From Gigantopelta aegis (Eukaryota; Mollusca; Gastropoda; Neomphalida; Peltospiridae), in assembly GCF_016097555.1 (NCBI RefSeq), contig NC_054699.1, forward strand, positions 2,089,293 through 2,153,292: a stretch of 64,000 nt of DNA. The letters run 5' to 3'. Shown here piece after piece: positions 16,982-48,800 of the stretch. The position numbers and the translations under genes are program-made. Below the pieces are notes generated by a model that searched no databases, was not told the origin of the DNA, and worked only from the letters and a program-made list of their open reading frames with translations. The first letter of the stretch is position 1. Each line of letters opens with the position of its first letter.

Positions 16982-19162
16982 CACACGTCAGTTTTCCACA
17001 TTCGTGCCGCCGGTTACATTATAGGGCTATAAGACATGTAGTGGAAACAAAAGTCGAATGTGTGGATGCAATACAATGGCATGATTTGGCATCCATGTTC
17101 AGCACTGGAATTAAGATGCATAGTGCTATTTTACTTTATTCCTTTATTCATTTTTATTTTGTGTAAGTGTCGGGTACTCGGGTCCAGGGCCAATATTTTG
17201 GACTCGGTGGAGGCCCTGATGGGATGCCGTGTACTACATACTTGGCAGAACGTGGGCGACTGCGGGTCCACGTCGATGGTGGCCAGGTAGTCGGGGCGGT
17301 CTTTCTCGGGTACAATACAGGGGATGTACAGCAGTTTTTCTCGCGGTCCTTTCATCGCTTCCAGAGGGGTGGCGTAGCCGGGTCCAGCGCAACATTCTGT
17401 GGGAAAACAAGTTTAGCAGTTTATTTCTATTCATTCTATTAACACCCTAGGTTGCTTGTTTGCTTACACTTATTTTTTAGTTCGAGTTACCTCCAGCCCT
17501 CCCCTTATTGATATCGATATGTCACCTCCAGCCCTCACCTTGTTGATATCGATATGTCACCTCCAGCCCTCACCTTGTTGATATCGATATGTCACCTCCA
17601 GCCCTCCCCTTGTTGATATCGATATGTCACCTCCAGCCCTCACCTTGTTGATATCGATATGTCACCTCCAGCCCTCACCTTGTTGATATCGATATGTCAC
17701 CTCCAGCCCTCACCTTGTTGATATCGATATGTCACCTCCAGCCCTCACCTTGTTGATATCGATATGTCACCTCCAGCCCTCACCTTATTGATATCGATAT
17801 GTCACCTCCAGCCCTCACCTTGTTGATATCGATATGTCACCTCCAGCCCTCACCCTCACCTGTTGATATCGATATGTCACCTCCAGCCCTCACCTTGTTG
17901 ATATCGATATGTCACCTCCAGCCCTCACCTTGTTGATATCGATATGTCACCTCCAGCCCTCACCTATCGAGTCCCTCCAGCCCTCCCCTGTTGATATCGA
18001 TATGTCACCTCCAGCCCTCCCCTTGTTGATATCGATATGTCACCTCCAGCCCTCACCTTGTTGATATCGATATGTCACCTCCAGCCCTCCCCTTGTTGAT
18101 ATCGATATGTCACCTCCAGCCCTCCCCTTGTTGATATCGATATGTCACCTCCAGCCCTCACCTTATTGATATCGATATGTCACCTCCAGCCCTCACCTTA
18201 TTGATATCGATATGTAGGTTATACATATCAATATCAATAAGGGGAGGGCTCGAGGTGACATATCAATATCAATTAATTCTGAATAAAAAATATTGGTAGT
18301 AAATCTTAAGGCAGAGACGAATTTTACTTGTAGAATGCAGGAAATTGTATTTCAGGACATCTAGTTTTCAACATTTTATGGGGGAGCATACCCCGAAACC
18401 CCTATAAACTTTGCTTTGCGCCCTCGATCTCAGTCAGTCCACCCACCTCACCCCCATGTCTACTTTCTTCCGCCAATGCCTGTGTTAAGTGACAAAGTTG
18501 GCGGCCTCCATTTTGCTTGTATTTATGGAATTCATCTTTGTAAGCACTATTTAGAACTATGTGTTTACCGTTGTCGACGGGACCTGAATGCAAAAAGGTC
18601 CTTGCAAAATGCGACATTGAAGGCTGTCGGCGGTGCAGATGAAAAGTGGAGAAACGATCAGGAACGATCGAAAACCGTTAAAAAGGCCTTCCTTATTATA
18701 TTATAGAATTGATAGAAACGATTAATAAACATCAACTTTACCCAGTACCAATGATGGTTGCAGTGGCGTAGGCAGGATTTTGTATTGGGGGGGGGGGGGG
18801 GGGGGGGCATCTGGCAGCCAAGTAAACATGATATCGAGTACGCCACTGATCACACCTAAATTTCCCGGGATTGGGGGTGGGCATGGCCATGGCCTCCTGC
18901 CCCCCCCCCCCCCCCCCCCCCCCCGGCTACGCCACTTGGTGGTGATGATGATGGTGGTGGTGGTGGTGTGTGTGTGCGTGTGTGCGCGTGCGTCCGTGCG
19001 TGCGTGCGTGCGTGTAATTGTGTGTGGTAATAATAATTTCTGATTCACAGGACGTAAAAAGAAAAGCAAACCGTTAAACTTTTGGATATAAAAACAAATT
19101 TATGAGCAATTTGTAAAATTATTGATCAAGATATAAATCAGACAGCAATACTCACCATCCAT
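1..19162 (-). CDS. SELENBP1: Selenium-binding protein 1 / methanethiol oxidase ortholog, 5' part (exons 1-5), runs off the left edge
   Basis: Five minus-strand exons (19162-19156, 17396-17242, 9994-9809, 7706-7586, 489-313) join in phase into 216 residues that read like the N-terminal half of vertebrate SELENBP1, whose full length is about 470 residues. Seen landmarks: [17 protein letters not shown] near the N-terminus, [10 protein letters not shown], the FCQV cysteine at residue 53 (equivalent to human Cys57, the reported selenium-binding residue), [28 protein letters not shown], and LLDGETF then [13 protein letters not shown]. The family is cytosolic; SELENBP1 is known as a methanethiol oxidase giving H2S, H2O2 and formaldehyde. 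All donors are GT and acceptors AG. Remaining exons must lie left of position 1. Introns are 1.8, 7.2, 2.1 and 7.1 kb and are full of transposons and tandem repeats. No break is visible in any exon, so the gene looks functional. Any 5' UTR exon or promoter is not identified. Confidence 0.95.
279..307. repeat. (TATG)n microsatellite
   Basis: Seven GTAT units directly next to the SELENBP1 exon 5 donor. Confidence 0.9.
313..489 (-). CDS. SELENBP1: SELENBP1 exon 5
   Basis: 177 nt, phase 1 at both ends; acceptor TTGAATTTAG, donor GTAATA. It encodes [19 protein letters not shown], then [20 protein letters not shown], then [17 protein letters not shown], matching the human DGETFEVKGTW, GYDFWYQPRHNVM and DGFNPADVEAG blocks. 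The donor is followed almost at once by a (GTAT)n microsatellite at 279-307. Exon 6 is not in this window. Confidence 0.95.
490..1187. other. SELENBP1 intron 4, no element seen
   Basis: AT-rich intronic sequence next to exon 5; nothing recognised. Confidence 0.6.
1188..1690 (-). mobile_element. Mosaic of molluscan-type tRNA SINEs
   Basis: Minus-strand SINE body and head (1310-1690, including CACCATCCCACAGACAGGAT-like text and GGGATCGATCC) with its tail start at 1190-1225. Between them a plus-strand tail of the second subfamily (CGTAAATAAAATGTGTTGAG) is inserted at about 1226-1300. Confidence 0.6.
2505..2728 (+). mobile_element. SINE, 5'-truncated, tail type 1
   Basis: Starts in the body (CCAGCCAGTGCACCACGATT), passes GGGATGGTGCATATAAACGA and ends GTGTTGTTAAACAAAACGAA. 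No tRNA-like head remains. SELENBP1 intron 4. Confidence 0.8.
3047..3362. mobile_element. Candidate MITE around an A/TA microsatellite
   Basis: Inverted ends TACTGATATTTAATAGAAAC then TATACCAA at left, and TTGGTATAGTTTCTTTTTGA then CGTCAGTATA at right. The interior is a poly(A) then (TA)n tract at 3129-3195. Boundaries approximate. Confidence 0.45.
3129..3195. repeat. Poly(A) then (TA)n
   Basis: About 34 A then about 17 TA units, within the candidate MITE at 3047-3362. Confidence 0.95.
3363..3909. other. SELENBP1 intron 4, unassigned
   Basis: No ORF or clear terminal repeats. AT-rich unique or old repeat sequence. Confidence 0.5.
3910..3975. repeat. Poly(T) then poly(G), LINE 3' tail
   Basis: On the LINE strand this is C about 37 then A-rich. 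It marks the 3' end of the LINE at 3977. Confidence 0.85.
4438..5292 (-). pseudogene. LINE C-terminal domain with zinc-knuckle-like motif
   Basis: 284 residues in a frame shifted relative to the thumb. It contains the zf-RVT-type signature [18 protein letters not shown] followed by [10 protein letters not shown], and ends near 4438. The preceding [20 protein letters not shown] block is the usual approach to this motif in L1-like elements. Confidence 0.85.
5304..5783 (-). pseudogene. LINE thumb region
   Basis: 159 residues continuing the RT frame: [20 protein letters not shown], then [20 protein letters not shown], then [20 protein letters not shown]. The [16 protein letters not shown] and FIWxNKPxRIKR blocks are typical of the L1/Tx1 thumb. 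It is separated from the preceding block by one in-frame stop only. Confidence 0.85.
5841..6599 (-). pseudogene. LINE reverse transcriptase domain (fingers/palm)
   Basis: 252 residues of L1-type reverse transcriptase. Visible motifs: [14 protein letters not shown] (block 1), [15 protein letters not shown] (block 2), [15 protein letters not shown] (motif A with catalytic Asp), [13 protein letters not shown] (motif B, with Asp where the family normally has Gly), [10 protein letters not shown] (motif C catalytic YADD) and [10 protein letters not shown] (block 6). It ends at a TAA at 5843-5841, after which the same frame resumes with [20 protein letters not shown]. Confidence 0.9.
6955..7075. repeat. 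38-bp tandem repeat, 3 copies
   Basis: TGTAAACGTATGTAGTTACA then CGCGTGTAAACAGACTT repeated three times, in SELENBP1 intron 4. Confidence 0.9.
7184..7385 (+). mobile_element. Microsatellite-headed repeat (GGTCA)n + TTTAACGTGC
   Basis: (CAGGT)n, then TAGGGTTTAGGGTTTAACGTGC, then a GC-richer stretch to about 7385. The junction 'microsatellite, then GTTTAACGTGC' is the same as at the head of the 1.06-kb repeats, though the following sequence differs. Lies in SELENBP1 intron 4. Probably a related non-autonomous element. Confidence 0.4.
7586..7706 (-). CDS. SELENBP1: SELENBP1 exon 4
   Basis: 121 nt, phase 0 in and phase 1 out; acceptor CTGCCGTAG, donor GTAGGT. It encodes [20 protein letters not shown] and [20 protein letters not shown], the region matching human HTSHCLASGEVMISSLGD. 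A homopolymer of about 35 nt (C on the plus strand, so G in the pre-mRNA) lies only about 60-95 nt upstream of the acceptor, at 7769-7804. Confidence 0.95.
7769..7804. repeat. Poly(C) of about 36 nt
   Basis: A pure C run; poly(G) in the SELENBP1 pre-mRNA shortly before exon 4. Confidence 0.95.
7838..8152 (-). mobile_element. Full-length SINE, tail type 2
   Basis: Minus strand: tRNA-like head GGGACGTAGCCCAGTGGTAA with B-box-like GGGATCAATCTC, body, and tail ending CGTTAAGTAAAACATTTCC. In SELENBP1 intron 4 beyond exon 4's acceptor side. Confidence 0.85.
8216..8571. mobile_element. MITE with TTAA target site and 22-bp inverted repeats
   Basis: Left end TTAAAGGGACATTCCCGAGTTTGC, given here in two parts: TTAA then AGGGACATTCCCGAGTTTGC. 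The right end reads back as AGGGATATTCCTGAGTTTGC then TTAA. Three mismatches in 22. The TTAA at both ends suggests a piggyBac-like (or other TTAA-targeting) parent. 356 bp, no coding capacity. Confidence 0.75.
8622..8806. mobile_element. Partial second copy of the TTAA MITE (right half)
   Basis: From ATTTTTTAGGAAATAAAATG to GGAATGTCCCTTTAA it repeats 8385-8571 with scattered changes. The 50 bp between the two copies (8573-8611) is the sequence shared with the 97-bp satellite. Confidence 0.7.
8931..9100 (+). mobile_element. SINE with a different tRNA-like head
   Basis: GCGGTATCTAGCTCAGTCGG TAGAACG carries an A-box-like TAGCTCAGTCGG, followed by GGATCGATTTC (B-box-like). It departs from the standard body soon after. 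Short copy. Not a tRNA gene: the acceptor and anticodon stems do not close. Confidence 0.6.
9809..9994 (-). CDS. SELENBP1: SELENBP1 exon 3
   Basis: 186 nt, exactly 62 codons, phase 0 at both ends; acceptor TTGGCCAACAG, donor GTATTT. It encodes [20 protein letters not shown] followed by [20 protein letters not shown] and then [17 protein letters not shown]. The CSSC motif and the DELHHTGWN block are near-invariant in the family. The acceptor has a weak pyrimidine tract, but the protein match fixes the boundary. Confidence 0.95.
10309..11838 (+). mobile_element. Tc1-type DNA transposon, decayed
   Basis: Imperfect terminal inverted repeats (about 26 bp, GAGGGACAnAnGAAAnGTTAC) at 10314-10337 and 11813-11836, both next to TA, the Tc1/mariner target. 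About 1.5 kb. It encodes one transposase on the plus strand. Start and stop positions of the coding remnant agree with a canonical element of one exon. Confidence 0.88.
10622..11618 (+). pseudogene. Tc1 transposase remnant
   Basis: [20 protein letters not shown] starts the paired-like helix-turn-helix at 10622. A frameshift near 10740 leads to [14 protein letters not shown] (the GRPR AT-hook) and [21 protein letters not shown] further shift leads to [20 protein letters not shown] (first catalytic Asp), then [10 protein letters not shown] where the second catalytic Asp is Asn, then SPIEFCG (the Glu), ending [19 protein letters not shown]34E family. At least three breaks and a lost catalytic residue make it inactive. 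Confidence 0.88.
11905..11985. repeat. 23-24-bp tandem repeat, 3-4 copies
   Basis: GGGAATGACGTTACACGGGG units; the TGACGT core is a CRE-like palindrome, probably by chance. Confidence 0.85.
12021..13078 (+). mobile_element. 1.06-kb unclassified dispersed repeat, copy 1
   Basis: Collinear with 34878-35912 over its whole length. It begins after a (GAT)n tract with AACTAGTTTAACGTGCCCAT and ends at AAACAAACACGTCTTACC. It contains a poly(G) run (12117-12134). No transposase or RT is visible. A 55-codon frame starting at ATG 12810 ([19 protein letters not shown]) has a shared start codon in copy 2. Family unknown; a non-autonomous element or a terminal piece of a longer one. It lies in SELENBP1 intron 2, opposite strand. 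Confidence 0.7.
13105..13307. mobile_element. Poly(G)-bearing MITE with perfect 16-bp TIRs and 5-bp target duplication
   Basis: Ends CAAGCCCGTAGCCAGG ... CCTGGCTACGGGCTTG, perfectly inverted over 16 bp, flanked on both sides by CATTC (13100-13104, 13308-13312). Interior has a G19 run. 203 bp, no coding. Superfamily not certain. Confidence 0.85.
13905..13985. repeat. ATTT-rich low-complexity tract
   Basis: Repeating TTATTTAT and TTTTATTTTA units. Confidence 0.85.
14554..14623. repeat. (AT)n microsatellite
   Basis: About 35 AT units; the open frame across it is an artefact. Confidence 0.95.
16246..16455. mobile_element. Related GTAGC-type MITE
   Basis: Left CAGGGACGTAGCTAGCAGG and right GCCCGTACGCCTATG. 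The interior (ATCCATGTAAAAATGCGTA, GCAACCCT, TAGTAATGCTAATATGAATA) recurs at 37338-37617. In SELENBP1 intron 2. Confidence 0.6.
17242..17396 (-). CDS. SELENBP1: SELENBP1 exon 2
   Basis: 155 nt; acceptor TTCCCACAG, donor GTATGT. With exon 1 it encodes 54 residues: [35 protein letters not shown] and [12 protein letters not shown]. It ends in phase 0 directly after Cys53-Gln54, the conserved cysteine linked to selenium binding in the human protein. It is noticeably more GC-rich than the surrounding intron. Confidence 0.95.
17489..18214. repeat. 35-bp minisatellite, about 20 copies
   Basis: Unit CACCTCCAGCCCTCACCTTG then TTGATATCGATATGT; variants differ by CCC/CAC and TTATT/TTGTT, and two internal units are disrupted (17845-17865, 17960-17990). 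Each unit carries the 10-bp palindrome ATATCGATAT. It lies in SELENBP1 intron 1. No spacers differ, so it is not a CRISPR. Confidence 0.95.
18215..18276. repeat. Inverted unit at the end of the 35-bp minisatellite
   Basis: Read on the minus strand this gives TTGATATTGATATGTCACCT then CGAGCCCTCCCCTTATTGAT, i.e. one and a half minisatellite units in opposite orientation, with ATATTGATAT in place of ATATCGATAT. It could pair with the last direct units as a hairpin. Confidence 0.75.
18761..18848. mobile_element. Short poly(G) MITE, 10-bp TIRs
   Basis: CAGTGGCGTA ... TACGCCACTG with a G-run of about 20 just inside the left end. A further C-run and inverted end (GGCTACGCCACTTGG) follow at 18899-18940, so a second degenerate copy may be attached. 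Confidence 0.55.
18940..19016. repeat. GGT/GATGAT then (TG)n/(CG)TG tract
   Basis: GATGATGATGGTGGTGGTGG followed by alternating TG and CGTG. Confidence 0.9.
19156..19162 (-). CDS. SELENBP1: SELENBP1 coding exon 1 (7 nt: start codon)
   Basis: The coding part of exon 1 is only ATGGATG, followed by the donor GTGAGT. The last G joins exon 2 to give Met-Asp-Glu-Cys-Cys-Ala-Gly-Pro-Gly, which matches the family N-terminus (Met..Cys..Cys-Gly-Pro-Gly-Tyr). The start was chosen because it is the only nearby ATG that supplies phase 1 into exon 2. Such a tiny first coding exon is missed by ORF-length methods. Confidence 0.8.
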
Positions 19163-20513: not shown

Positions 20514-23500
20514 GTACACGCTTACAGAATGTGTAAGTTGAATGTCCCTTTAAAGTCTGTTAAATGAGAATACTGTTTAAACTGATGTTTTTTGTTTATT
20601 GATTTCCGTGTACACGCTTACAGAATGTGTAAGTTGAATGTCCCTTTAAAGTCTGTTAAATGAGAATACTGTTTAAACTGATGTTTTTTTGTTTATTGAT
20701 TTCCGTGTACACGCTTACAGAATGTGTAAGTTGAATGTCCCTTTAAAGTCTGTTAAATGAGAATACTGTTTAAATGAGTTTATTGATTTCCGTGTACACG
20801 CTTACAGAATGTTAAAATGAATACTGTTTAAACTGATGTTTTTTTTGTTTATTGATTTCCGTGTACACGCTTACAGAATGTGTAAGTTGAATGTCCCTTT
20901 AAAGTCTGTTAAATGAGAATACTGTTTAAACTGATGTTTTTTTGTTTATTGATTTCCGTGTACACGCTTACAGAATGTGTAAGTTGAATGTCCCTTTAAA
21001 GTCTGTTAAATGAGAATACTGTTTAAACTGATGTTTTTTTGTTTATTGATTTCCGTGTACACGCTTACAGAATGTGTAAGTTGAATGTCAGTCTGTTAAA
21101 TGAGAATACTGTTTAAACTGATGTTTTTTTGTTTATTGATTTCCGTGTACACGCTTACAGAATGTGTAAGTTGAATGTCCCTTTAAAGTCTGTTAAATGA
21201 GAATACTGTTTAAACTGAAACGGATGTTTTTTTGTTTATTGATTTCCGTGTACACGCTTACAGAATGTGTAAGTTGAATGTCCCTTTAAAGTCTGTTAAA
21301 TGAGAATACTGTTTAAACTGATGTTTTTTTGTTTATTGATTTCCGTGTACACGCTTACAGAATGTGTAAGTTGAATGTCCCTTTAAAGTCTGTTAAATGA
21401 GAATACTGTTTAAACTGATGTTTTTTTGTTTATTGATTTCCGTGTACACGCTTACAGAATGTGTAAGTTGAATGTCCCTTTAAAGTCTGTTAAATGAGAA
21501 TACTGTTTAAACTGATGTTTTTTTGTTTATTGATTTCCGTGTACACGCTTACAGAATGTGTAAGTTGAATGTCCCTTTAAAGTCTGTTAAATGAGAATAC
21601 TGTTTAAACTGATGTTTTTTTGTTTATTGATTTCCGTGTACACGCTTACAGAATGTGTAAGTTGAATGTCCCTTTAAAGTCTGTTAAATGAGAATACTGT
21701 TTAAACTGGTGTTTTTTTGTTTATTGATTTCCGTGTACACGCTTACAGAATGTGTAAGTTGAATGTCCCTTTAAAGTCTGTTAAATGAGAATACTGTTTA
21801 AACTGATGTTTTTTTGTTTATTGATTTCCGTGTACACGCTTACAGAATGTGTAAGTTGAATGTCCCTTTAAAGTCTGTTAAATGAGAATACTGTTTAAAC
21901 TGATGTTTTTTTGTTTATTGATTTCCGTGTACACGCTTACAGAATGTGTAAGTTGAATGTCCCTTTAAAGTCTGTTAAATGAGAATACTGTTTAAACTGA
22001 TGTTTTTTTGTTTATTGATTTCCGTGTACACGCTTACAGAATGTGTAAGTTGAATGTCCCTTTAAAGTCTGTTAAATGAGAATACTGTTTAAACTGATGT
22101 TTTTTTGTTTATTGATTTCCGTGTACACGCTTACAGAATGTGTAAGTTGAATGTCCCTTTAAAGTCTGTTAAATGAGAATACTGTTTAAACTGATGTTTT
22201 TTTGTTTATTGATTTCCGTGTACACGCTTACAGAATGTGTAAGTTGAATGTCCCTTTAAAGTCTGTTAAATGAGAATACTGTTTAAACTGATGTTTTTTT
22301 GTTTATTGATTTCCGTGTACACGCTTACAGAATGTGTAAGTTGAATGTCCCTTTAAAGTCTGTTAAATGAGAATACTGTTTAAACTGATGTTTTTTTGTT
22401 TATTGATTTCCGTGTACACGCTTACAGAATGTGTAAGTTGAATGTCCCTTTAAAGTCTGTTAAATGAGAATACTGTTTAAACTGATGTTTTTTTGTTTAT
22501 TGATTTCCGTGTACACGCTTACAGAATGTGTAAGTTGAATGTCCCTTTAAAGTCTGTTAAATGAGAATACTGTTTAAACTGATGTTTTTTTGTTTATTGA
22601 TTTCCGTGTACACGCTTACAGAATGTGTAAGTTGAATGTCCCTTTAAAGTCTGTTAAATGAGAATACTGTTTAAACTGATGTTTTTTTGTTTATTGATTT
22701 CCGTGTACACGCTTACAGAATGTGTAAGTTGAATGTCCCTTTAAAGTCTGTTAAATGAGAATACTGTTTAAACTGATGTTTTTTTGTTTATTGATTTCCG
22801 TGTACACGCTTACAGAATGTGTAAGTTGAATGTCCCTTTAAAGTCTGTTAAATGAGAATACTGTTTAAACTGATGTTTTTTTGTTTATTGATTTCCGTGT
22901 ACACGCTTACAGAATGTGTAAGTTGAATGTCCCTTTAAAGTCTGTTAAATGAGAATACTGTTTAAACTGATGTTTTTTTGTTTATTGATTTCCGTGTACA
23001 CGCTTACAGAATGTGTAAGTTGAATGTCCCTTTAAAGTCTGTTAAATGAGAATACTGTTTAAACTGATGTTTTTTTGTTTATTGATTTCCGTGTACACGC
23101 TTACAGAATGTGTAAGTTGAATGTCCCTTTAAAGTCTGTTAAATGAGAATACTGTTTAAACTGATGTTTTTTTGTTTATTGATTTCCGTGTACACGCTTA
23201 CAGAATGTGTAAGTTGAATGTCCCTTTAAAGTCTGTTAAATGAGAATACTGTTTAAACTGATGTTTTTTTGTTTATTGATTTCCGTGTACACGCTTACAG
23301 AATGTGTAAAAGTTGAATGTCCCTTTAAAGTCTGTTAAATGAGAATACTGTTTAAACTGATGTGTTTTTTGTTTATTGATTTCCGTGTACACGCTTACAG
23401 AATGTGTAAGTTGAATGTCCCTTTAAAGTCTGTTAAATGAGAATACTGTTTAAACTGATGTTTTTTTGTTTATTGATTTCCGTGTACACGCTTACAGAAT

Positions 23501-25705
23501 GTGTAAGTTGAATGTCCCTTTAAAGTCTGTTAAATGAGATTTCCGTGTACACGCTTACAGAATGTGTAAGTTGAATGTCCCTTTAAAGTCTGTTAAATGA
23601 GAATACTGTTTAAACTGATGTTTTTTTGTTTTATTGATTTCCGTGTACACGCTTACAGAATGTGTACACGCTGTACAGAGAATACTGTTTAAACTGATGT
23701 TTTTTTGTTTATTGATTTCCGTGTACACGCTTACAGAATGTGTAAGTTGAATGTCAGTTTGTTAAATGAGAATACTGTTTAAACTGATGTTTTTTTGTTT
23801 ATTGATTTCCGTGTACACGCTTACAGAATGTGTAAGTTGAATGTCCCTTTAAAGTCTGTTAAATGAGAATACTGTTTAAACTGATGTTTTTTTGTTTATT
23901 GATTTCCGTGTACACGCTTACAGAATGTGTAAGTTGAATGTCCCTTTAAAGTCTGTTAAATGAGAATACTGTTTAAACTGATGTTTTTTTGTTTATTGAT
24001 TTCCGTGTACACGCTTACAGAATGTGTAAGTTGAATGTCCCTTTAAAGTCTGTTAAATGAGAATACTGTTTAAACTGGTGTTTTTTTGTTTATTGATTTC
24101 CGTGTACACGCTTACAGAATGTGTAAGTTGAATGTCCCTTTAAAGTCTGTTAAATGAGAATACTGTTTAAACTGATTTTTTTTGTTTATTGATTTCCGTG
24201 TACACGCTTACAGAATGTGTAAGTTGAATGTCCCTTTAAAGTCTGTTAAATGAGAATACTGTTTAAACTGATGTTTTTTTGTTTATTGATTTCCGTGTAC
24301 ACGCTTACAGAATGTGTAAGTTGAATGTCCCTTTAAAGTCTGTTAAATGAGAATACTGTTTAAACTGATGTTTTTTTGTTTATTGATTTCCGTGTACACG
24401 CTTACAGAATGTGTAAGTTGAATGTCCCTTTAAAGTCTGTTAAATGAGAATACTGTTTAAACTGATGTTTTTTTGTTTATTGATTTCCGTGTACACGCTT
24501 ACAGAATGTGTAAGTTGAATGTCCCTTTAAAGTCTGTTAAATGAGAATACTGTTTAAACTGATGTTTTTTTGTTTATTGATTTCCGTGTACACGCTTACA
24601 GAATGTGTAAGTTGAATGTCCCTTTAAAGTCTGTTAAATGAGAATACTGTTTAAACTGATGTTTTTTTGTTTATTGATTTCCGTGTACACGCTTACAGAA
24701 TGTGTAAGTTGAATGTCCCTTTAAAGTCTGTTAAATGAGAATACTGTTTAAACTGATGTTTTTTTGTTTATTGATTTCCGTGTACACGCTTACAGAATGT
24801 GTAAGTTGAATGTCCCTTTAAAGTCTGTTAAATGAGAATACTGTTTAAACTGATGTTTTTTTGTTTATTGATTTCCGTGTACACGCTTACAGAATGTGTA
24901 AGTTGAATGTCCCTTTAAAGTCTGTTAAATGAGAATACTGTTTAAACTGATGTTTTTTTGTTTATTGATTTCCGTGTACACGCTTACAGAATGTGTAAGT
25001 TGAATGTCCCTTTAAAGTCTGTTAAATGAGATTGATACTGAATGTTAAAATGTCCCTTTAAAGTCTGTTAAATGAGAATACTGTTTAAACTGATGTTTTT
25101 TGTTTATTGATTTCCGTGTACACGCTTACAGAATGTGTAAGTTGAATGTCCCTTTAAAGTCTGTTAAATGAGAATACTGTTTAAACTGATGTTTTTTTGT
25201 TTATTGATTTCCGTGTACACGCTTACAGAATGTGTAAGTTGAATGTCCCTTTAAAGTCTGTTAAATGAGAATACTGTTTAAACTGATGTTTTTTTGTTTA
25301 TTGATTTCCGTGTACACGCTTACAGAATGTGTAAGTTGAATGTCCCTTTAAAGTCTGTTAAATGAGAATACTGTTTAAACTGATGTTTTTTTGTTTATTG
25401 ATTTCCGTGTACACGCTTACAGAATGTGTAAGTTGAATGTCCCTTTAAAGTCTGTTAAATGAGAATACTGTTTAAACTGATGTTTTTTTGTTTATTGATT
25501 TCCGTGTACACGCTTACAGAATGTGTAAGTTGAATGTCCCTTTAAAGTCTGTTAAATGAGAATACTGTTTAAACTGATGTTTTTTTGTTTATTGATTTCC
25601 GTGTACACGCTTACAGAATGTGTAAGTTGAATGTCAGTCTGTTAAATGAGAATACTGTTTAAACTGATGTTTTTTTGTTTATTGATTTCCGTGTACACGC
25701 TTACA
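20514..25705. repeat. 97-bp satellite array, about 53 units
   Basis: A head-to-tail array of a 97-bp unit (spacing measured between TCCGTGTACA occurrences at 22021 and 22118). Most inner units look identical. Short or shuffled units sit near both edges (20780-20830, 21080-21100, 23520-23700, 25030-25070, 25630). The unit holds four short palindromes: CGTGTACACG, CTTACA-gaatg-TGTAAG, CTTTAAAG and GTTTAAAC. It starts about 1.35 kb upstream of the SELENBP1 start codon. No ORF. Confidence 0.98.
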
Positions 25706-40830: not shown

Positions 40831-41549
40831 CCTATCAAAACCTGCAAAAAGTGAGTTACTAGGTTTTACCATTGGATGATGCCCGTTGGTGTTCTTTTTG
40901 TTTTTCTTAATTTGTCTTCATTACTTTTCAGTTCAAGCAAGATTCTGGTCAACGCAGATGGGATAAGAGAAAGAAATTACCTGCTTTTATAAATTAATTA
41001 GTTGCAATTGGCACTGGACGTACATGTTATACATGTGTAGAGTGCATGTATTAATGTATAGTATTTGATTTCAAATACTCACATCACTAGCTTCTTGAAA
41101 AATGAGTCTTTGTGAAGTACGTACATGGACTATTCATATTTGTGTACTGTAGTGTCTGGATGTTTCTTATTAACCAGTAATTCAACACATCAGCATGGTA
41201 CAGATCTGAAGAAGATGTATGAAAGTGTACATGTTATTGTTGCTTAATACATTTAAACAGAGTGTGATGGTTTTACATGGACTGCATTTGCTGTTATCAT
41301 CTTCATCTTGCAAATTTAGTACTACAGTGTACATTTTATGATGCTAACAGGCTGCTACTAGAAAGTATTATAAAACCATTGGCTGTAGCAACTGTTGATG
41401 ATAAATTAAAAACCGGTATAGAACATGTTGCAACCAAATGACTAATTGTATTGTAACACAATGTTTTTAATACACATGCTGAATCGAAGGAACATTGTTT
41501 GAATACATGGATTATTCTATAAAAACATGCTTGTGCTAATCAAGCATTT

Positions 41550-43167
41550 ATGAGGAAGTGTGTTAACCCAGCAGTCATGCTTTGTCAAGGGTCTACCGCA
41601 CAAGTTGATGACTCTGTGGAGAAAGGTTGCGAGAATAATACAAATCTGATGGATTTGCAGGATGACTTTCAAAATGCTGCATTAGCAGCCTATTTTGATT
41701 ATCTCTACTTGCTGACAACAAAACCAGCAGTAGAGAAAATACTGAGCCTAAAAAATCTCCGCAAGAAGCAAACACATCGCAGAAGAGGATCACAAGGAAA
41801 CACAAATCTCAATTTGGTGTCTGGACCATCAGAAATAATTACTTCTGACCGTGGTCAACAAAAAGCAAAAAATGGTTCCTTTTGTGAAATTTCACAATTG
41901 TTTGTTACTGGTGTGCAAATGGAAAGGTTTGTAGATAATGTGCATACTAGTGTTTATACATCAGAAGCAGTTGCTCTTGTTAATGCTTCAGAAGCAGGTG
42001 CTTGTGTTAATACTTCAAAACCAGATGCTCGTGTTAATACTTCAGAAGCAGTTGTTGCTGATGCTGATTTAGTTGGAACATCGGATGCAAACAACCAGAC
42101 TGTTACATCTTCAAAGTCTGACAAGATTTCAGCTTCGCACAATTCTGTGTCTGCTGATGCTTGTGAAGTAGCTAACAACAGAAACCTGACCATCAGGGAT
42201 GTGACCATGTCTCCGAGGACCAAAAACCACAATGAGAAATTACTTTCAAGAATCTTCAACAGACTCTACGATAGCTTGAGTGACCTGGAACCTGGTGAAC
42301 ACGTTGATGACAGTTTTGACCACATCTGTGATCAGTCTTGTAACGGAAGCAGTGTCACACTCAGGCTGAAGAAACCAAGAAGGAAACTTAGAAAACTCAG
42401 CGACTGTTTATCGGATTCATTCAGTGCGTGTTCGTATGGCTTGTCCGGCTGTGCTAGTTATGAAAGAGGTTCTGTAGATGCGTCTGCCTGTGGTAAGAAA
42501 GGGTTGTGGTCAGACTCATCAGCTATTTGTTGTAAGGACAACTTTGAGTGTAACAAAGAAACGACACAGTTTTCTTCAAGAGAAGATGAAGCATCACTCA
42601 GCAGTGTAGGTAAACCCAAATGGCAGAGTTCAAGGAAGCGACAGTGTGACAAAGATACTGTGGAACATTCTCCAGAAAAGATGTCGAATAAGGCTTCAGT
42701 CTGTGTAGAATGTGAGCAGGCACATGTAAACAAAGCCGAGCAGGCACATGTAAACAAAGCCAAGCAGGCACCGGTAGATGGAGACCAGCCATTAACTCGC
42801 CAGGCCATCAAGAATCTAAATGCCTGTAATGACCAAAATAACAAAGTCTGTTCAGAATGTAAGAAACATATAGAAGATGGCTCAGTCTTGTTAGGTAATT
42901 TGAATAAAGAAACTTCTGCTCAAGAGTTTATTTTATCACAGGGATGTACATCACATGTTTTATCTTCTGGGGACAAGAGACAACCTGGTTATTCTACTGT
43001 TATGCTAGACCAAGGAGATGATACCAAGGGAGACAATTCAATGGTTTCAGATTCCAAGGGAGAGGATTCTGTGTTTCCATATTCCAAAAGAGAAAATTCT
43101 GTATTTCCAGACTTCAAGGGAGATAATTCCATGTTTCCAGATTCCAAAGAAGAAAATGAAAGAAAAG
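41550..43167 (+). CDS. Gene 2 exon 1 (long, repeat-bearing)
   Basis: 1618 nt of open frame ending at donor AAAAG/GTACAG in phase 1. The frame stays open past the donor to 43247, but that extension (GTVSSIGLKVVN...) is read-through into intron sequence. Codon use and the coherent acidic/serine-rich composition support coding. Minus-strand open frames across this exon (41593-41805, 41954-42259, 42458-42844) are mirror images of it and are not genes. Confidence 0.9.
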
Positions 43168-46100
43168 GTACAGTGTCATCCATAGGGTTGAAAGTTGTGA
43201 ATATTTACACTGTTTTGGTGCATGTAGTTTGCAGTGGTGGGCAATAATTTCGGCACTTGCAGGCTGCATGTTTCCATTCAATTGTTTTAATTAAATTAAT
43301 CACTGTATAAGACACTTTGTAATATTGGCATAACATGGTAATTACACACAATAATAATAATAAACTCAATGCACATTTATTTAAAGTTTATTTTACAAAG
43401 CATTTTTTCCCTATACTGCAAAACTAGCCATATTGTTACACTAACCATAGAGGTACAGATAGTTATCATGTAAGTATTTGCTCCCACTAGGGTTTTAATG
43501 AAAAAATAACTAGCCGCGGTGGTGTCGTGGTTAAGCCATTGAACATACGGCTGGTAGGTACAGGGTTCGCAGCTCGGTACCGGCTCCCACCCAGAGCTGG
43601 TTTTAACAACTCAGTGGGTAGGTGTAAGGCAACTACACTCTCTTATCTCTCACTAACCACTAACAATTAACATCTAACCCACTGTCCTGGACAGACAGCC
43701 CTGATAGCTGAGGAGTCTGCCCACGACAGCGTGCTTGAACCTTAAGTGGGTATAAGCATGATAATAAGTTGAAATGAAAAATAAAATGACAAAATTTTTC
43801 CATGTTATCGGTGTTCACAGAATTTAGGTTTTGTGCCAAATGTTTTAGTCAGGAGTGACAAGCCTGCACATTTGCTCTTGTCCCTGTTCTTTGATGAGCT
43901 GAGTGCTTGCTCTAGGTGCTTGCATCGCAGGATCAAACTACCTCTGTGGATCCATTCAGCTGATATTTTTTTTCTCTCATTCGAACCAGTGCACCACAAC
44001 TGGTCAAAGGCCTGGGTATGTGCTTTCCTGTATGTATGTGGGAAGGTGCATATAAAAAAACCCATTGCTGCATTAGGAAATATATTTGTTTTGTTTAACA
44101 ACACTACTAGAGCACATTGATTTGTTGATCATCTGCTATTGGATGTCAAACATTAGGTAATTTTAACATATAGTCTTAGAGGAAACCTGCTACATTTTTC
44201 AATTAGTAGCAAGGGATCTTTTATATACACCATCCCACAGACAGGATAGTACATACCATGGCCTTTGATATATGTATCAGTTGTGGTGCACTGGCTGGAA
44301 CAAGAAATAACCTAATGGGTCCACCGACAGGGATCGATCCTAGACCATTAATCGCATTAAGCGAACGCTTTGCCACTGAGCTACATCCCGCCCTCTCGAC
44401 TGATTGATGTTTGTTTATTGTTATGTTACAGCAGTCCGTGATGCTCAGATGGATGATGATGCTGACAGTACTTTGCCACTGAGCTACATCCCGCCCTCTC
44501 GACTCTGATGTTTGTTTATTGTTATGTTACAGCAGTCTGTGATGCTCAGATGGATGATGATGCTGACAGTACTTTGCCACTGAGCTACATCCCGCCCTCT
44601 CGACTCTGATGTTTGTTTATTGTTATGTTACAGCAGTCTGTGATGCTCAGATGGATGATGATGCTGACAGTACTTTGCCACTGAGCTACATCACGCCCTC
44701 TCGACTCTGATGTTTGTTTATTGTTATGTTACAGCAGTCTGTGATGCTCAGATGGATGATGATGCTGACAGTACTTTGCCACTGAGCTACATCACGCCCT
44801 CTCGACTGATTGATGTTTGTTTATTGTTATGTTACAGCAATCCGTGATGCTCAGATGGATGATGATGCTGACAGTACTTTGCCACTGAGCTACATCCTGC
44901 CCTCTCAACTCATTGATGTTTGTTTATTGTTATGTTACAGCAGTCCGTGATGCTCAGATGGATGATGATGCTGACAGTACTTGTAGTGGCGTGGCAGGCA
45001 GCTCAGATACTGGTTAGTGCTAATTTTAATATATACTCTTCAAAAAAAGTAGGGGAACTCCAATAAGAATTTACAATTGCCCAAATTGTAAGGTATATTA
45101 GCTGTGGGGAATGGTTATATGATAACAGTGAATTAATTGGGCAAACATTACAACTGGTAGTTCAGTATTACAGTAGTTTTTATGACCACCAAAGATCTTA
45201 AAGGACGACTGGGGTCAGAAGTGAAATTTGAAAGTTGACTGGGTTTTTTCAGTAAATCGCAAATTAAAACAATAAAAATTACTCAAAACAAAACAATAAC
45301 ATCGTTGCTATATGATCAACAGAATAAAAAAGATGACAGAAATAATGTTCCAGTGATTAATGGACCTTCCTGGAAATTGTCAAAATCGAGAATGACACCC
45401 CACACACGTGTACGGGGCAACTGTGTGATGCATGTGAAAACTATGGAATGTGTTTCGGTGTGTTGATAAACAGACCTGAACGTTCTTTACTAGGATGTCT
45501 GTGGTCAAAATGTATGATTGGTCAACTAGTTGATATTAACATTAATATTTTAGGTTCCCCTACTTTTTTTGAAGAGTGTTTTTTTTGGGGTGGGTGGGTT
45601 GGGGGCATGGCAAGTATTTCCTTCAGTTCATTAATAAAAATAAGGGCAACAAGTTACATTTTTCCTTCAAAAGAGGGGCACGAAGTCTGCTTACTTTCTA
45701 TCAGTTTTGTTTTTAGACGAAAGTTATTTCACCTTGGTGTTGGGGCTCTAATCAAGATAATGAAAACAAAATGTTTGCGTGAAGATTAACTGTAATATAT
45801 TAATGTGGTTTTTGGGTGGGTTTTTTTACCTTTTCAGAAAAGTTGTATGATGTGACCAGTCATCTTGCCCGTGGAATACGGCTCAGATCGGGTACAAAGG
45901 TTTTGCCAGTGATCAACCCCAAATATCAGCAGTATTATAGACTGATCACCGAGTTTTCCAAACAAAGGTTTGTGTCCATAGCAACATAAAATTATATGAT
46001 CTGGCTAAAATTAAAATAATCTTACTGTTCACACTATGACATATTCAAAGTCAATCTGAGTTTATCCAATGTTATCGTCTGTCCAGATTTCCCTCAAGAC

Positions 46101-47981
46101 TGTAGGAATTGAGGTGGGGGTGGGGGTTGGGGTTAAAACAGATGAAAATTGTCTCCATATTCTATGTTTGAAGCAGCAGTGTTTGAAGCCACACCACACA
46201 CACACGCACACAAAAAGAGTCTCCTCGGGGGGGTCAGATGTAGTCCGTTGGTAAAGCGCCCACTTGGTGCATGGTCAGTCTGGGATTGATCCCCGTCGGT
46301 GGGTCTATTGGGCTATTTCTCGTTCCAGCAATACAAAGAAAGAAAAGTTTTATTTAACTCATGCACTCAACACATTTTATTTACGGTTATATGGCGTCAG
46401 GACATATGGTTAAGGACCACACAGATTTTGAGAGGAAACCCACTGTCGCCACTACATAGGCTACTCTTCCGATTAGCAGCAAGGGATCTTTTATTTGCGC
46501 TTGTGGTTTACACCTACCCATTGAGTCTTGCGGAGCACTCACTCATAGTCGGTATCTGGATTAAAAATCCCATGCCTCGACTGGGATCTGAACCCAGTAC
46601 CTACCAGCCTGTAGACCGATGGCCTACCACGACGCCACCGAGGCCGGTCCAGCTATACAGTGCACCACCATTGGTATATCAAAGGCTGTAGTATGTGCTA
46701 TCCTTTCTGTGGGATGTGCATATAAAAAATCCCTTGCTATTAATGGGAAAATGTAGCGGGTTTCCTCTCTAGGACTATATATCAAAATTACCAAATGTTT
46801 GATGTCCAATAGCCGATGATTAATAAATCAATGTGCTCTGGTGGTGTCGTTAAACAAAACAAATTTTAATTTTAACCATCTTTATTTTGAGGGGTGAGAT
46901 GTAGTTCCGTGGTAGAGTGCTTGCCTGAGGAGTGCGATGGGTTACTGGATCGATCATCCTCGGTGGATTCAGGATTTTTTACCATCCCAACCAATGCCCC
47001 ACAGCTGTGGCCATTGTATGTAGTCCTGTCTGTGGTCAAAGGCTGTGGTATGTACTATCCTGTCTGTGGGAAAGTGCATATAAAAGATCCCTTGCTGCTT
47101 TATCAGTAGAAGTAACTCATACAGTGTCAATGGTTTCCTCTCTCTACATGTCTCTTTCTCTCTGCACGTCTCTTTCTCTCACTGTCTCTGTCTGTCTGTC
47201 TCTCTCTGTGCCTGTCTCTCGACCTCAACCTCGACCAAATAATGTCTAAATAACCAAGTTAGACACCAACTAGATGTGTGTTAAAATGTGCTGAGGTGTC
47301 ATTAAAGAGATATTGTTTTCCTTTGATATTTTCTTTTTAATCTTCAGTGAGAAAAACACCAGGGTAAAAAAAGACGAGGAGAGAAAAGTACAGAAGTGTC
47401 TTCGGTTTAAGAGAAAACGTCATCTCGACTGGTTTGACAGGAAAGCATCTAAACGTCGACGTCATTTGCAAGTGAATCATGGAGAAAATAGAGATACATC
47501 ATTTTCCAAAGTTAAATCTCGTAAAAAGGTTTTAATTACAAATTCGTTAATGTCTGGTTCCAAGAGGGGTGATAACTGGAGAAAAACCAAACAGAAAATC
47601 TTAAATAGACAGAAGAATTTTGAATACATTACGAAAAGGAATTTTAAAAACATTTCAAAAAGTCACAAAAGGAAAGTGAAAGTAGCTTCTTCGAAGAGGA
47701 CCAGTCCAAAATGGCCAAAACGGACGGAAAAGATTTGTGAGGAACGGTCCATTTTGAAATGTCACGAGGCAGTGAGAACCAGTCCAATACCTTCAGACCC
47801 GTTTTCCCACCTGTGTCAGTTAGAACGTAAAGCGGTGGATATCGGGGTGGGTGACATGGAAAAACTCTTGTCGAGCAAGCCACAGAATGGTCAGGATTCG
47901 ACAGTTTTGTTTTCCGTTCAACATAAACTTGTACAGTGGCACCCAGGAGGAATTTGGCAAACTATAGTCACAGACAAATGA
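41550..47981 (+). CDS. Unrecognised four-exon gene, 817-residue Ser-rich/basic protein
   Basis: Exons 41550-43167, 44941-45012, 45838-45967 and 47348-47981 join with GT/AG boundaries and matching phases (1, 1, 2) into 2454 nt, an exact multiple of three ending at TGA 47979. The ATG at 41550 is the first after an in-frame TAA at 41520. The N-terminal 540 residues are Ser/Asn/Asp-rich and low in structure, with an early hydrophobic-acidic patch (LQDDFQNAALAAYFDYLYLL) near residue 36. Three short internal repeat sets follow: V-NTSEA units, AHVNKA units, and D/SKGDNSMFPDSKEEN-type acidic units just before the first intron. The short middle exon adds DAQMDDDADSTC. Exon 3 encodes a compact segment, YDVTSHLARGIRLRSGTKV then INPKYQQYYRLITEFSKQ. 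The last 211 residues are very Lys/Arg-rich (RFKRKRHLDWFDRKASKRRR), suggesting a nuclear or nucleic-acid-associated protein. I do not recognise the family; upstream non-coding exons are possible. Confidence 0.85.
43511..43792 (+). mobile_element. Full-length SINE type C
   Basis: Head TAGCCGCGGTGGTGTCGTGG with GGGTTCGCAGCTC, then a body unlike types A/B (CACTGTCCTGGACAGACAGC ... CGTGCTTGAACCTTAAGTGG). In gene 2 intron 1. Confidence 0.8.
43900..44084 (+). mobile_element. SINE, head partly lost
   Basis: GCATCGCAGGATCAAAC (B-box-like) then CGAACCAGTGCACCACAACT and GGAAGGTGCATATAAAAAAA. Ends where the next, opposite SINE starts. Gene 2 intron 1. Confidence 0.65.
44085..44400 (-). mobile_element. 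Full-length SINE, tail type 1, feeding the exon-2 tandem array
   Basis: Plus strand: TTTGTTTAACAACACTACTA ... GGGATCGATCC ... TTTGCCACTGAGCTACATCC CGCCC. Its last 30 bp is the first part of the 101-103-bp unit amplified at 44371-44980. Confidence 0.85.
44371..44980 (+). repeat. Six tandem copies of a SINE-end/intron-end/exon-start unit (101-103 bp)
   Basis: Units begin at about 44371, 44474, 44575, 44676, 44777 and 44880. Each has the rim of a SINE head (TGCCACTGAGCTACATCCCG), the polypyrimidine and acceptor TTATTGTTATGTTACAG, and the first 40 nt of gene 2 exon 2 (GTGATGCTCAGATGGATGAT...). The last copy continues into the rest of exon 2. Unit lengths are not multiples of three. Confidence 0.95.
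44941..45012 (+). CDS. Gene 2 exon 2 (72 nt, symmetric phase 1)
   Basis: 72 nt between acceptor TTATGTTACAG and donor GTTAGT. With the carried G it encodes AVRDAQMDDDADSTCSGVAG then SSDT. Being 24 codons and phase 1-1, it can be skipped or included without changing frame. Its first 40 nt, together with the preceding intron end, occur five more times in tandem upstream (44371-44879), so several acceptors compete here. Which copy is used cannot be told from sequence; this last copy is the only one joined to the rest of the exon and a donor. Confidence 0.85.
45036..45576. mobile_element. Tc1/mariner-type MITE in gene 2 intron 2
   Basis: TIRs CTCTTCAAAAAAAGTAGGGG ... and the inverted copy CCCCTACTTTTTTTGAAGAG, about 24 bp including the adjoining GAAC. 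541 bp, no transposase. TA is present at the left flank only. Confidence 0.75.
45838..45967 (+). CDS. Gene 2 exon 3
   Basis: 130 nt; acceptor ACCTTTTCAG, donor AAAG/GTTTGT; phase 1 in, phase 2 out. It encodes EKLYDVTSHLARGIRLRSGT followed by KVLPVINPKYQQYYRLITEF and SKQ. This is the most fold-like part of the protein and the best query for a homology search. Confidence 0.88.
46225..46872 (+). mobile_element. SINE tail type 1, split by another SINE
   Basis: Left part 46225-46335 (GGTCAGATGTAGTCCGTTGG, GGGATTGATCCCC), right part 46649-46872 (GTGCACCACCATTGGTATAT ... GTGTCGTTAAACAAAACAAA). Gene 2 intron 3. Confidence 0.85.
46336..46648 (-). mobile_element. SINE type B nested inside a SINE, with 11-bp target duplication
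   Basis: Minus strand: type B head GGCCTCGGTGGCGTCGTGGT ... tail type 2. Flanking repeats CCAGCAATACA (46325-46335) and CCAGCTATACA (46649-46659) differ at one base. Confidence 0.88.
46891..47145 (+). mobile_element. SINE with D-type head on shared body
   Basis: GGGGTGAGATGTAGTTCCGT, GGATCGATCATCC, then TGGTATGTACTATCCTGTCT and GTGCATATAAAAGATCCCTT. CT-rich tract follows. Gene 2 intron 3, 200 bp before exon 4. Confidence 0.7.
47348..47981 (+). CDS. Gene 2 exon 4 (terminal, Lys/Arg-rich)
   Basis: 634 nt; acceptor TTAATCTTCAG; phase 2 in. Codons SEKNTRVKKDEERKVQK lead into strongly basic stretches with several bipartite nuclear-localisation-like clusters, then a neutral tail (DPFSHLCQLERKAVDIGVG ... 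HPGGIWQTIVTDK) ending at TGA 47979. The open frame upstream of 47348 (from 47313) is intron read-through. A decayed copy of 47579-47705 lies at 48552-48662. No AATAAA is seen in the first 300 nt after the stop. Confidence 0.9.
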
Positions 47982-48436
47982 TACGGGACACTTGCCTTTT
48001 TATCATATCTTCTATTTAATCAATTATATTCAAGTTGCAGGCTTTCTGCCAGAGGGTAAAACGGGTATGGCGCTATACCCAAAGATTTTTGCAGTTTTTT
48101 TTAAGTTAACCTTTTGACAAAATTAATAACTCTTTATCATTACTGTATGATTTTCTTAACCCTAACCCATACCCATTGTCTTTCTGTGGAGGCCCCCATA
48201 CCCCCTGTCGACTGTGGTTGCATTTAGCACACACATTGTAAATATTCAATTCCATAGCGCCATACCCAAAAACTTTCTTTCTGGCAGATACACTGTGAAC
48301 TGTGAGTAAAATATGTGGCGAAGCAAGTAGCTGAATTAGAACAATTCAGCCATTTTGTAAGAGCAGGATGTTGCTTAGCGGTAGAGAGCTTGCGTTTGGT
48401 GTGCTGATTAACATATATGATTATAGAATCAATCGC

Positions 48437-48800
48437 CCTCGGAGGGAGAGGGACGTAGCCCAGTGGTAAAGCGTTCGCCCCATATGCCGTTGATGAAGCA
48501 CCGGTCTGTGCCGAAGGGCGCATTAGGCTATTTCTTGTTCTAGTTACAATTGAAGAAAAACTTAAACATAAAATCTTAAATAGAAGAAGTTTGAATACAC
48601 TTTTAAAACATTTCAAAAAGTGACAAAGCAAAAGTGAAACTTGTTCTTTGAAGAGGACCAGTGTAACAGAGGCCGTGATGTGTTCTATCCTGTCTGTGAG
48701 GTGCTGTCACCATCTGTGTGGTCATTAACCATATCTCAAATACCATATAACCACAATTAAAATGTGTCGAGTGTAATTAACTAAAACATTTCTTCCTTCG
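48437..48800 (+). mobile_element. SINE tail type 2 carrying an exon fragment
   Basis: Head GGGACGTAGCCCAGTGGTAA to TTTCTTGTTCTAG (48551), then the exon-4 copy, then the body from TAACAGAGGCCGTGATGTG to ACTAAAACATTTCTTCC. Confidence 0.7.
48552..48662 (+). pseudogene. Decayed partial copy of gene 2 exon 4
   Basis: Matches 47579-47705: both read AAAATCTTAAATAG, then AAGAA-TTTGAATACA, AAACATTTCAAAAAGT and GAAGAGGACCAGT, with short deletions and an in-frame stop. It sits inside a SINE (48437-48800), replacing the SINE's middle. Non-functional. Confidence 0.8.

What the first reader, a model, noticed from the sequence alone, without database searches (positions are those of the whole stretch)
44371..45012. 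An intron/exon boundary amplified six times in tandem
Seen: a 101-103-bp unit repeated six times carries the rim of an inverted SINE, a full polypyrimidine tract and acceptor, and the first 40 nt of gene 2 exon 2. Only the last copy continues into the whole exon and its donor. Five extra 3' splice sites are therefore lined up in front of a 72-nt phase 1-1 exon. Unit lengths are not multiples of three, so use of an upstream acceptor would shift the frame. Inference: a recent slippage or unequal-exchange event seeded at the SINE edge has made a splice-site cluster that could give noisy or regulated splicing.
Basis: partly seen in the sequence, partly recalled or inferred. Interest (0 to 1): 0.75.

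Follow-up and report, generated by a model that had tools for sequence, protein, structure and literature searches.

The report
Exon front edge repeated six times
In this animal genome, which is full of short tandem repeats, one such repeat has copied the start of a small exon, with its splice signal, five extra times in front of the intact exon; this is most likely a repeat-expansion accident whose extra copies act as unproductive decoys.

Summary
Six head-to-tail units (103, 101, 101, 101, 103, 103 bp; 44368-44979) each carry 26 nt of an antisense SINE, the same polypyrimidine tract and CAG acceptor, and the first 42 nt of a 72-nt exon; only the last copy reaches the donor. The four-exon model reads 826 codons.

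The internal junctions share a 3-bp microhomology (CTT), as expected from one founding tandem duplication followed by unequal exchange; copies 2 and 3 are identical. Reading on from any upstream acceptor meets a stop after 71-110 nt, so its use would be unproductive.

The setting makes the event unremarkable: tandem arrays of period >=20 cover 14% of the window and 8.7-35% of groups of sampled stretches; two other arrays carry a SINE 5' edge; array units in general are not enriched for acceptor-like sites. A potato gene has the same geometry with two copies, where it made a new intron (PMC4974935). No RNA data were available, so acceptor choice is inferred. New member of a known kind.

The parts
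41523..43167 (+). Exon 1 of gene 2 (open part; true 5' end not determined), donor AAG|GTACAG
   Evidence: open frame 41523-43247, 548 full codons up to the donor; joins in frame to exons 2-4; donor score 4.73
44082..44393 (-). tRNA-type SINE (kind recalled from its look), antisense to the gene, in intron 1, ends approximate; its first 26 nt are in every unit
   Evidence: blastn matches to other copies in the window; unit match positions 1-26
44368..44470 (+). Unit copy 1 (103 bp), acceptor AG ends 44431
44471..44571 (+). Unit copy 2 (101 bp), acceptor AG ends 44532
44572..44672 (+). Unit copy 3 (101 bp, identical to copy 2), acceptor AG ends 44633
44673..44773 (+). Unit copy 4 (101 bp), acceptor AG ends 44734
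44774..44876 (+). Unit copy 5 (103 bp), acceptor AG ends 44837; NAGNAG lost (CAGCAA)
44877..44979 (+). Unit copy 6 (103 bp), acceptor AG ends 44940; runs on into the whole exon
44941..45012 (+). Exon 2 (72 nt, phase 1-1), donor CTG|GTTAGT
   Evidence: in-frame join; codon log-odds +9.7 in gene frame against -3.3 and -21.6 in the other two, reached by 1 of 424 intron stretches
45838..45967 (+). Exon 3 (130 nt)
   Evidence: in-frame join; codon log-odds -1.57, best of three frames but negative
47348..47982 (+). Exon 4 with the stop codon
   Evidence: in-frame join; one match in the genome at protein level

Best explanation
A short tandem duplication with a 3-bp microhomology (CTT) joined exon 2 nucleotide 42 back to nucleotide 26 of an antisense SINE that ends 38 nt before the acceptor. 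The resulting ~103-bp repeat then grew to six copies by unequal exchange or slippage, during which a 2-bp-shorter variant spread to copies 2-4. Because the duplicated stretch ends inside the exon, the last copy kept the whole exon with its donor, so the gene stayed readable. The five upstream copies now lie in intron 1 as decoy 3' splice sites without a good donor. Shown: anatomy, matching junctions, copy variants, stops. Inferred: order of events, and that most transcripts use acceptor 44940 (exon defined across 72 nt) while upstream use gives a nonproductive transcript.
For: Junction CTT is shared by the left flank (ACG-CTT-TGCC), the five internal junctions (GTA-CTT-TGCC, 5 of 5) and the exon (GTA-CTT-GTAG). 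Copies 2 and 3 are identical; copies 2-4 share a 2-bp deletion and a C-to-T change; an A at column 21 is shared by copies 4 and 5 across the two types, as unequal exchange would leave. The genome is rich in such arrays: 14.4% of the window in 23 arrays of period >=20 (from the table); 26-35% in three groups of non-random places (200 kb together) and 8.7% of 50 kb at 5 random places. Units at L026:1-207 and L029:1834-5007 also carry a SINE 5' edge plus flank. Each of 5 upstream acceptors leads to an in-frame stop 71-110 nt into the exon. The three arrays inside coding exon 1 have periods 27, 24 and 30, all multiples of three, whereas this one (101/103) does not, as expected if only copy 6 is translated. 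Flanking introns are long (1264 nt from the exon-1 donor to the first acceptor, 825 nt after exon 2; from the coordinates), the setting in which human genes are reported to favour splice sites closest across the exon (PMC9225289, abstract and section 9).
Against: No RNA reads or second individual could be examined. In the same human data the upstream 3' splice site is preferred overall, and exon definition is said to reduce that preference significantly, so sizeable upstream use is possible. All six acceptors score alike, and predicted accessibility is lowest for copy 6 (0.44 against 0.47-0.63). Gene 2 has no recognised relative, so exon 2 rests on frame, splice signals and codon use; skipping it also keeps the frame. 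The history is a parsimony reading of 8 variable columns, and three bases of microhomology are weak evidence. At random internal places arrays are fewer (8.7%) than in the outer sample, which rests on 5 stretches.
Confidence: 0.72

Rival explanations
1. Copy-number rheostat: upstream acceptors are used at a meaningful rate and each such transcript carries a premature stop, so array length tunes output of gene 2 (a length-dependent poison-acceptor cluster).
For: Six acceptors of equal local strength; stop after 71-110 nt from each of the five upstream ones, 62 nt or more before the exon 2/3 junction (lengths). A human intronic VNTR is correlated with splicing by its length (ABCA7, PMC5954066, abstract).
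Against: No expression data; constraint and conservation could not be tested; array units in general are not enriched for acceptor-like sites (5 of 63 against 133 of 1252 control stretches).
Confidence: 0.13
2. Nascent intron gain: a weak donor (ACA|GTACTT) at exon nucleotide 36 of each copy is used, giving up to five extra 36-nt in-frame mini-exons separated by 65-67-nt introns.
For: The frame stays open through all five (886 codons). The same geometry with two copies made a new intron in a potato gene (PMC4974935).
Against: The donor scores -0.51 (56th percentile of GTs in the window), against 4.73-6.49 for the gene's donors; the potato donor is GTAAG. In copies 1-4 two of three GTs, and in copy 5 two of two, would be in frame, so the frame fit is weak evidence.
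Confidence: 0.04
3. Assembly expansion: fewer copies exist in the animal.
For: Copies 2 and 3 are identical; reads could not be seen.
Against: 8 variable columns in a non-random order across copies; the array is about 615 bp, short against usual long reads (sequencing method of this assembly not known); one match, on a 47-Mb contig.
Confidence: 0.07
4. Exon 2 is not an exon of the gene (exon 1 joins exon 3), so the array is an intronic minisatellite only.
For: Skipping exon 2 keeps the frame open, 802 codons; no relatives to confirm the exon.
Against: Acceptor 8.42 and donor 6.49; codon log-odds +9.7 in the gene frame, reached by 1 of 424 intron stretches.
Confidence: 0.1

Closest known systems
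Intron gain by tandem duplication across the intron 1/exon 2 boundary, potato RdRp gene (PMC4974935; abstract and Results section read)
   Same: The duplicated stretch holds the 3' end of an intron (branch site, polypyrimidine tract, CAG) and the 5' part of the next exon.
   Different: Two copies there, six here. There a cryptic GTAAG donor makes a new spliced intron, shown by RNA reads; here the only donors inside the copied exon part are weak and no RNA was seen.
Intronic VNTR correlated with splicing (human ABCA7, PMC5954066; abstract read)
   Same: A tandem array in a gene, with possible effect on splicing by length.
   Different: The ABCA7 array is intronic; here each unit holds a whole 3' splice site and part of the exon. 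No effect has been shown here.
Human introns from tandem arrays (Zhuo et al. 2007; title seen only in a reference list; content recalled; not held)
   Same: Tandem arrays supply splice signals (recalled).
   Different: Here the array copies an existing acceptor and does not clearly make a new intron.
SINE-derived satellite PcH-sat in limpets (PMC11121367; passages read)
   Same: A tandem array whose unit includes part of a SINE, in a mollusc.
   Different: Pericentromeric satellite, not at an exon.

Membership tests
Minisatellite / short tandem duplication array | Head-to-tail near-identical units | tested here: met
   6 units, 96% matches, 8 variable columns of 103
Minisatellite / short tandem duplication array | Copy number varies among individuals | not testable with these tools
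   One assembly only; no second haplotype of the locus appeared in the searches
Microhomology-mediated tandem duplication | Short identity shared by the two breakpoints | tested here: met
   CTT, 3 bp; three bases are weak evidence by themselves
Intron gain by tandem duplication (potato RdRp type) | Duplicate spans intron 3' end and exon 5' part | tested here: met
Intron gain by tandem duplication (potato RdRp type) | Usable donor in the upstream exonic copy | tested here: not met
   Best GTs within the exonic segment score -0.24 (TCT|GTGATG) and -0.51 (ACA|GTACTT) against 4.73-6.49 for the gene's donors (matrix from recalled human-like frequencies)
Intron gain by tandem duplication (potato RdRp type) | RNA evidence that the new intron is removed | not testable with these tools
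   No RNA data
Tandem whole-exon duplication (mutually exclusive exons) | Each copy is a complete exon with acceptor and donor | tested here: not met
   Only copy 6 reaches the donor at 45012
Poison-exon or nonsense-mediated-decay switch | Alternative acceptor use brings a premature stop | tested here: met
   5 of 5 upstream acceptors
Poison-exon or nonsense-mediated-decay switch | The alternative form is made and regulated | not testable with these tools
   No RNA data

The most novel reading that the evidence does not exclude
The array is a live experiment in gene-structure evolution: a length-variable cluster of six equal 3' splice sites that lowers gene output in proportion to copy number and, through a weak donor in each copy, already yields occasional 36-nt in-frame mini-exons (12 residues each), that is, up to five new introns from one repeat.
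Probability: 0.06. Interest if true: 0.7.

Novelty: new member of a known kind. Interest (0 to 1): 0.3.

Why it matters
It is a natural competition between six locally identical 3' splice sites in front of one exon; junction counts here would test intron-centric against exon-centric proximity rules in an invertebrate. It also shows a mutation type (tandem growth that ends inside an exon) that leaves the gene readable and could feed intron gain. As an event it is ordinary in a genome so rich in tandem arrays.

Tried and rejected
Tried: paralogues or a second haplotype of the gene in its own genome: none seen at DNA level for the array or at protein level for exons 3-4. Relatives: a 25-base exact pattern in viral contigs (0 matches) and the exon 3-4 protein in prokaryote genomes (26 pattern matches, none confirmed). 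Gene identity: Pfam (0 families), solved structures (best E 0.78; best E 0.11): not identified. Rfam at gathering scores on 41500-48500: 0 matches. 'Mollusc' rests on recalled likeness of the SINE.

Considered and rejected: that arrays in this genome prefer splice acceptors. Two arrays in L036 looked like intron/exon edges, but I saw no convincing coding frame there in the sequence or the ORF list, and acceptor-like sites were no commoner in array units than in random stretches of the same length and source (5 of 63, this array being one of the 63, against 133 of 1252; donor-like 10 of 63 against 242 of 1252). Re-splicing through a regenerated donor: by eye, no GT arises at the exon 1/copy join; the first GTs within each copy score -1.46 to -0.24. 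A target-site duplication of the SINE: only a 7-nt T-rich shared word, not convincing. A survey of arrays at exon edges of a large gene family (PF00069) did not complete.

Splice-site matrices were typed from recalled human-like frequencies, so scores are relative only. My first exon joins were wrong by one base: exons 1 and 3, exon 3; corrected. The stops for the upstream acceptors fall inside exon 2 and use the right exon 1, so they stand; one search's stops, and one search's lines for copy 6 and for exon skipping, are wrong and not used.

Full report
Observation. The sequence shows six head-to-tail units at 44368-44979. Unit lengths are 103, 101, 101, 101, 103, 103 bp. Each holds the first 26 nt of an antisense SINE, a stretch with branch-point-like words (for example CTGAT or TTGAT, seen; consensus recalled, no tool applied), the same T-rich tract and acceptor (last 19 intron nt identical in 6 of 6), and the first 42 nt of exon 2, the last three of them the CTT shared at the junction. 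Eight of 103 columns vary; copies 2 and 3 are identical; the most distant pair (4 and 6) differs at 7 columns. TRF score 1106 leaves no question of chance. A search of the 1.149-Gb genome gives one match, the window itself.

Gene model. An exon open for 548 codons (41523-43167), exon 2 (44941-45012), exon 3 (45838-45967) and exon 4 (47348-47982) join into 826 codons and one stop. Exon 2 is 72 nt, phase 1-1; skipping it keeps the frame (802 codons), so the frame alone does not prove it. Its codon log-odds, trained on exons 1 and 4 against introns of the same gene, is +9.7 in the gene's frame and negative in the other two; 1 of 424 stretches of those introns reaches it. Exon 3 by the same measure is -1.57, best of its three frames but not positive. 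The protein matches no Pfam family at E up to 1, and searches of solved structures with exon 1 and with exons 3-4 gave nothing better than E 0.11. The protein search of exons 3-4 in the genome gives the window's own two exons only.

How it arose. Left flank, internal junctions and exon share CTT exactly at the breakpoints: a duplication with 3-bp microhomology. The five internal junctions match, so one founding event and later growth is the simplest history. Copies 2-4 share a 2-bp deletion and a C-to-T change; copies 4 and 5 share an A although they belong to different types; this block pattern is what unequal exchange out of register leaves (parsimony reading, not a formal test).

Setting. 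The window holds 23 arrays of period >=20 covering 14.4% (from the table; a second run gives 24 arrays, 9,215 bp). The other 22 arrays cover 13.5%; if placed at random, the chance that they touch at least one of the six splice sites of this gene would be 0.58, or 0.28 leaving out the 97-bp satellite. In 200 kb from 20 non-random places (13 of them 100 kb from contig starts) arrays of period >=20 cover 26-35% by group, 32.7% overall; in 50 kb from 5 random places, 8.7%. The window itself lies at 2.09-2.15 Mb of a 47-Mb contig, so the dense outer sample may be the better comparison. Of 133 array units from the window and the 20 non-random places, nine match the SINE, three of them (this one, L026:1-207, L029:1834-5007) at its 5' edge, L026 weakly (E 0.003). 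Array units of period 40-200 from the window and all 25 places do not carry acceptor-like sites more often than random stretches of the same length and source (5 of 63 against 133 of 1252), nor donor-like sites (10 of 63 against 242 of 1252). Nothing I measured therefore marks this array as other than one of many.

What it does. Read on from any of the five upstream acceptors, translation meets a stop 71-110 nt into the extended exon. That holds for copy 2 as well, whose extended exon (480 nt) is a multiple of three. The stops lie at least 62 nt before the exon 2/3 junction (from the lengths), which by the recalled 50-nt rule would expose such transcripts to nonsense-mediated decay. Local acceptor strength is equal in all six (8.42), and these six are the best-scoring of 96 AGs at 43190-44999. 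Choice must then depend on context. In human genes with long flanking introns the sites closest across the exon are said to be favoured, but for 3' sites the text reports a significantly reduced upstream preference and gives no reversal that I could read (PMC9225289, abstract, passages and section 9). I infer that 44940 dominates, since only there does a 72-nt exon with a donor arise and since the gene's frame is intact, but meaningful upstream leakage is possible; predicted accessibility does not favour copy 6 (0.44, lowest of six).

Mini-exons. Each copy has a weak donor-like ACA|GTACTT at exon nt 36. Its use would give 36-nt in-frame mini-exons and 65-67-nt introns; with all five the frame is open for 886 codons. 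The score (-0.51, 56th percentile) makes this unlikely now. It is nonetheless the kind of route by which the potato RdRp duplication, of the same geometry with two copies, became a new intron, there with a GTAAG donor and 106 supporting RNA reads (PMC4974935, Results). Related passages read: in one Drosophila study all 18 sequences of introns attributed to tandem duplication hold a premature stop (PMC2891723), and new Drosophila introns have weaker sites, with decay of misspliced RNA proposed as a backup (PMC2809761).

Judgement. Observation confirmed; interpretation partly supported; kind known. Papers were searched with the terms; in the rows listed (not every paper counted was listed) I saw no report of six or more tandem 3' splice sites from one repeat, which is not proof that none exists.

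Noticed in passing
17489-18215 (minus strand): A 35-bp array of about 21 copies in an intron of gene 1 (selenium-binding protein SBP56, Pfam PF05694), about 90 nt before an exon; AGGTGAGG, a strong donor-like motif, occurs 15 times on the gene's strand: an array of possible decoy 5' splice sites in the neighbouring gene.
   Followed up: partly
20514-25705: A 97-bp satellite of about 50 copies; its consensus unit holds an acceptor-like CTTACAG followed 5 nt later by GTAAGT on the plus strand, opposite to gene 1.
   Followed up: no
41950-42054, 42714-42771, 43020-43157: Three tandem arrays inside coding exon 1 of gene 2, periods 27, 24 and 30 bp, all in frame; the last ends 10 nt before the exon's end.
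   Followed up: partly
45028-45584: A roughly 557-bp element with 31-nt inverted ends (90% complementary) in intron 2, starting 16 nt after exon 2; 39 other near-full matches at 91-93% were listed in the genome, a capped list.
   Followed up: no
43929-44393: Two SINEs face each other in intron 1; the RNA of 43910-44440 folds into a long hairpin (-179 kcal/mol, z -8.0) just before the array.
   Followed up: partly
L029:1834-5007 and L026:1-207: Other minisatellites in the same genome whose unit includes the 5' edge of the SINE family plus flanking DNA.
   Followed up: partly
L034:4-1705: A 32-bp array of about 53 copies whose consensus reads like an acceptor and a donor seven bases apart (TCTTGTAGTGTGGAGGTAAGT).
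   Followed up: no
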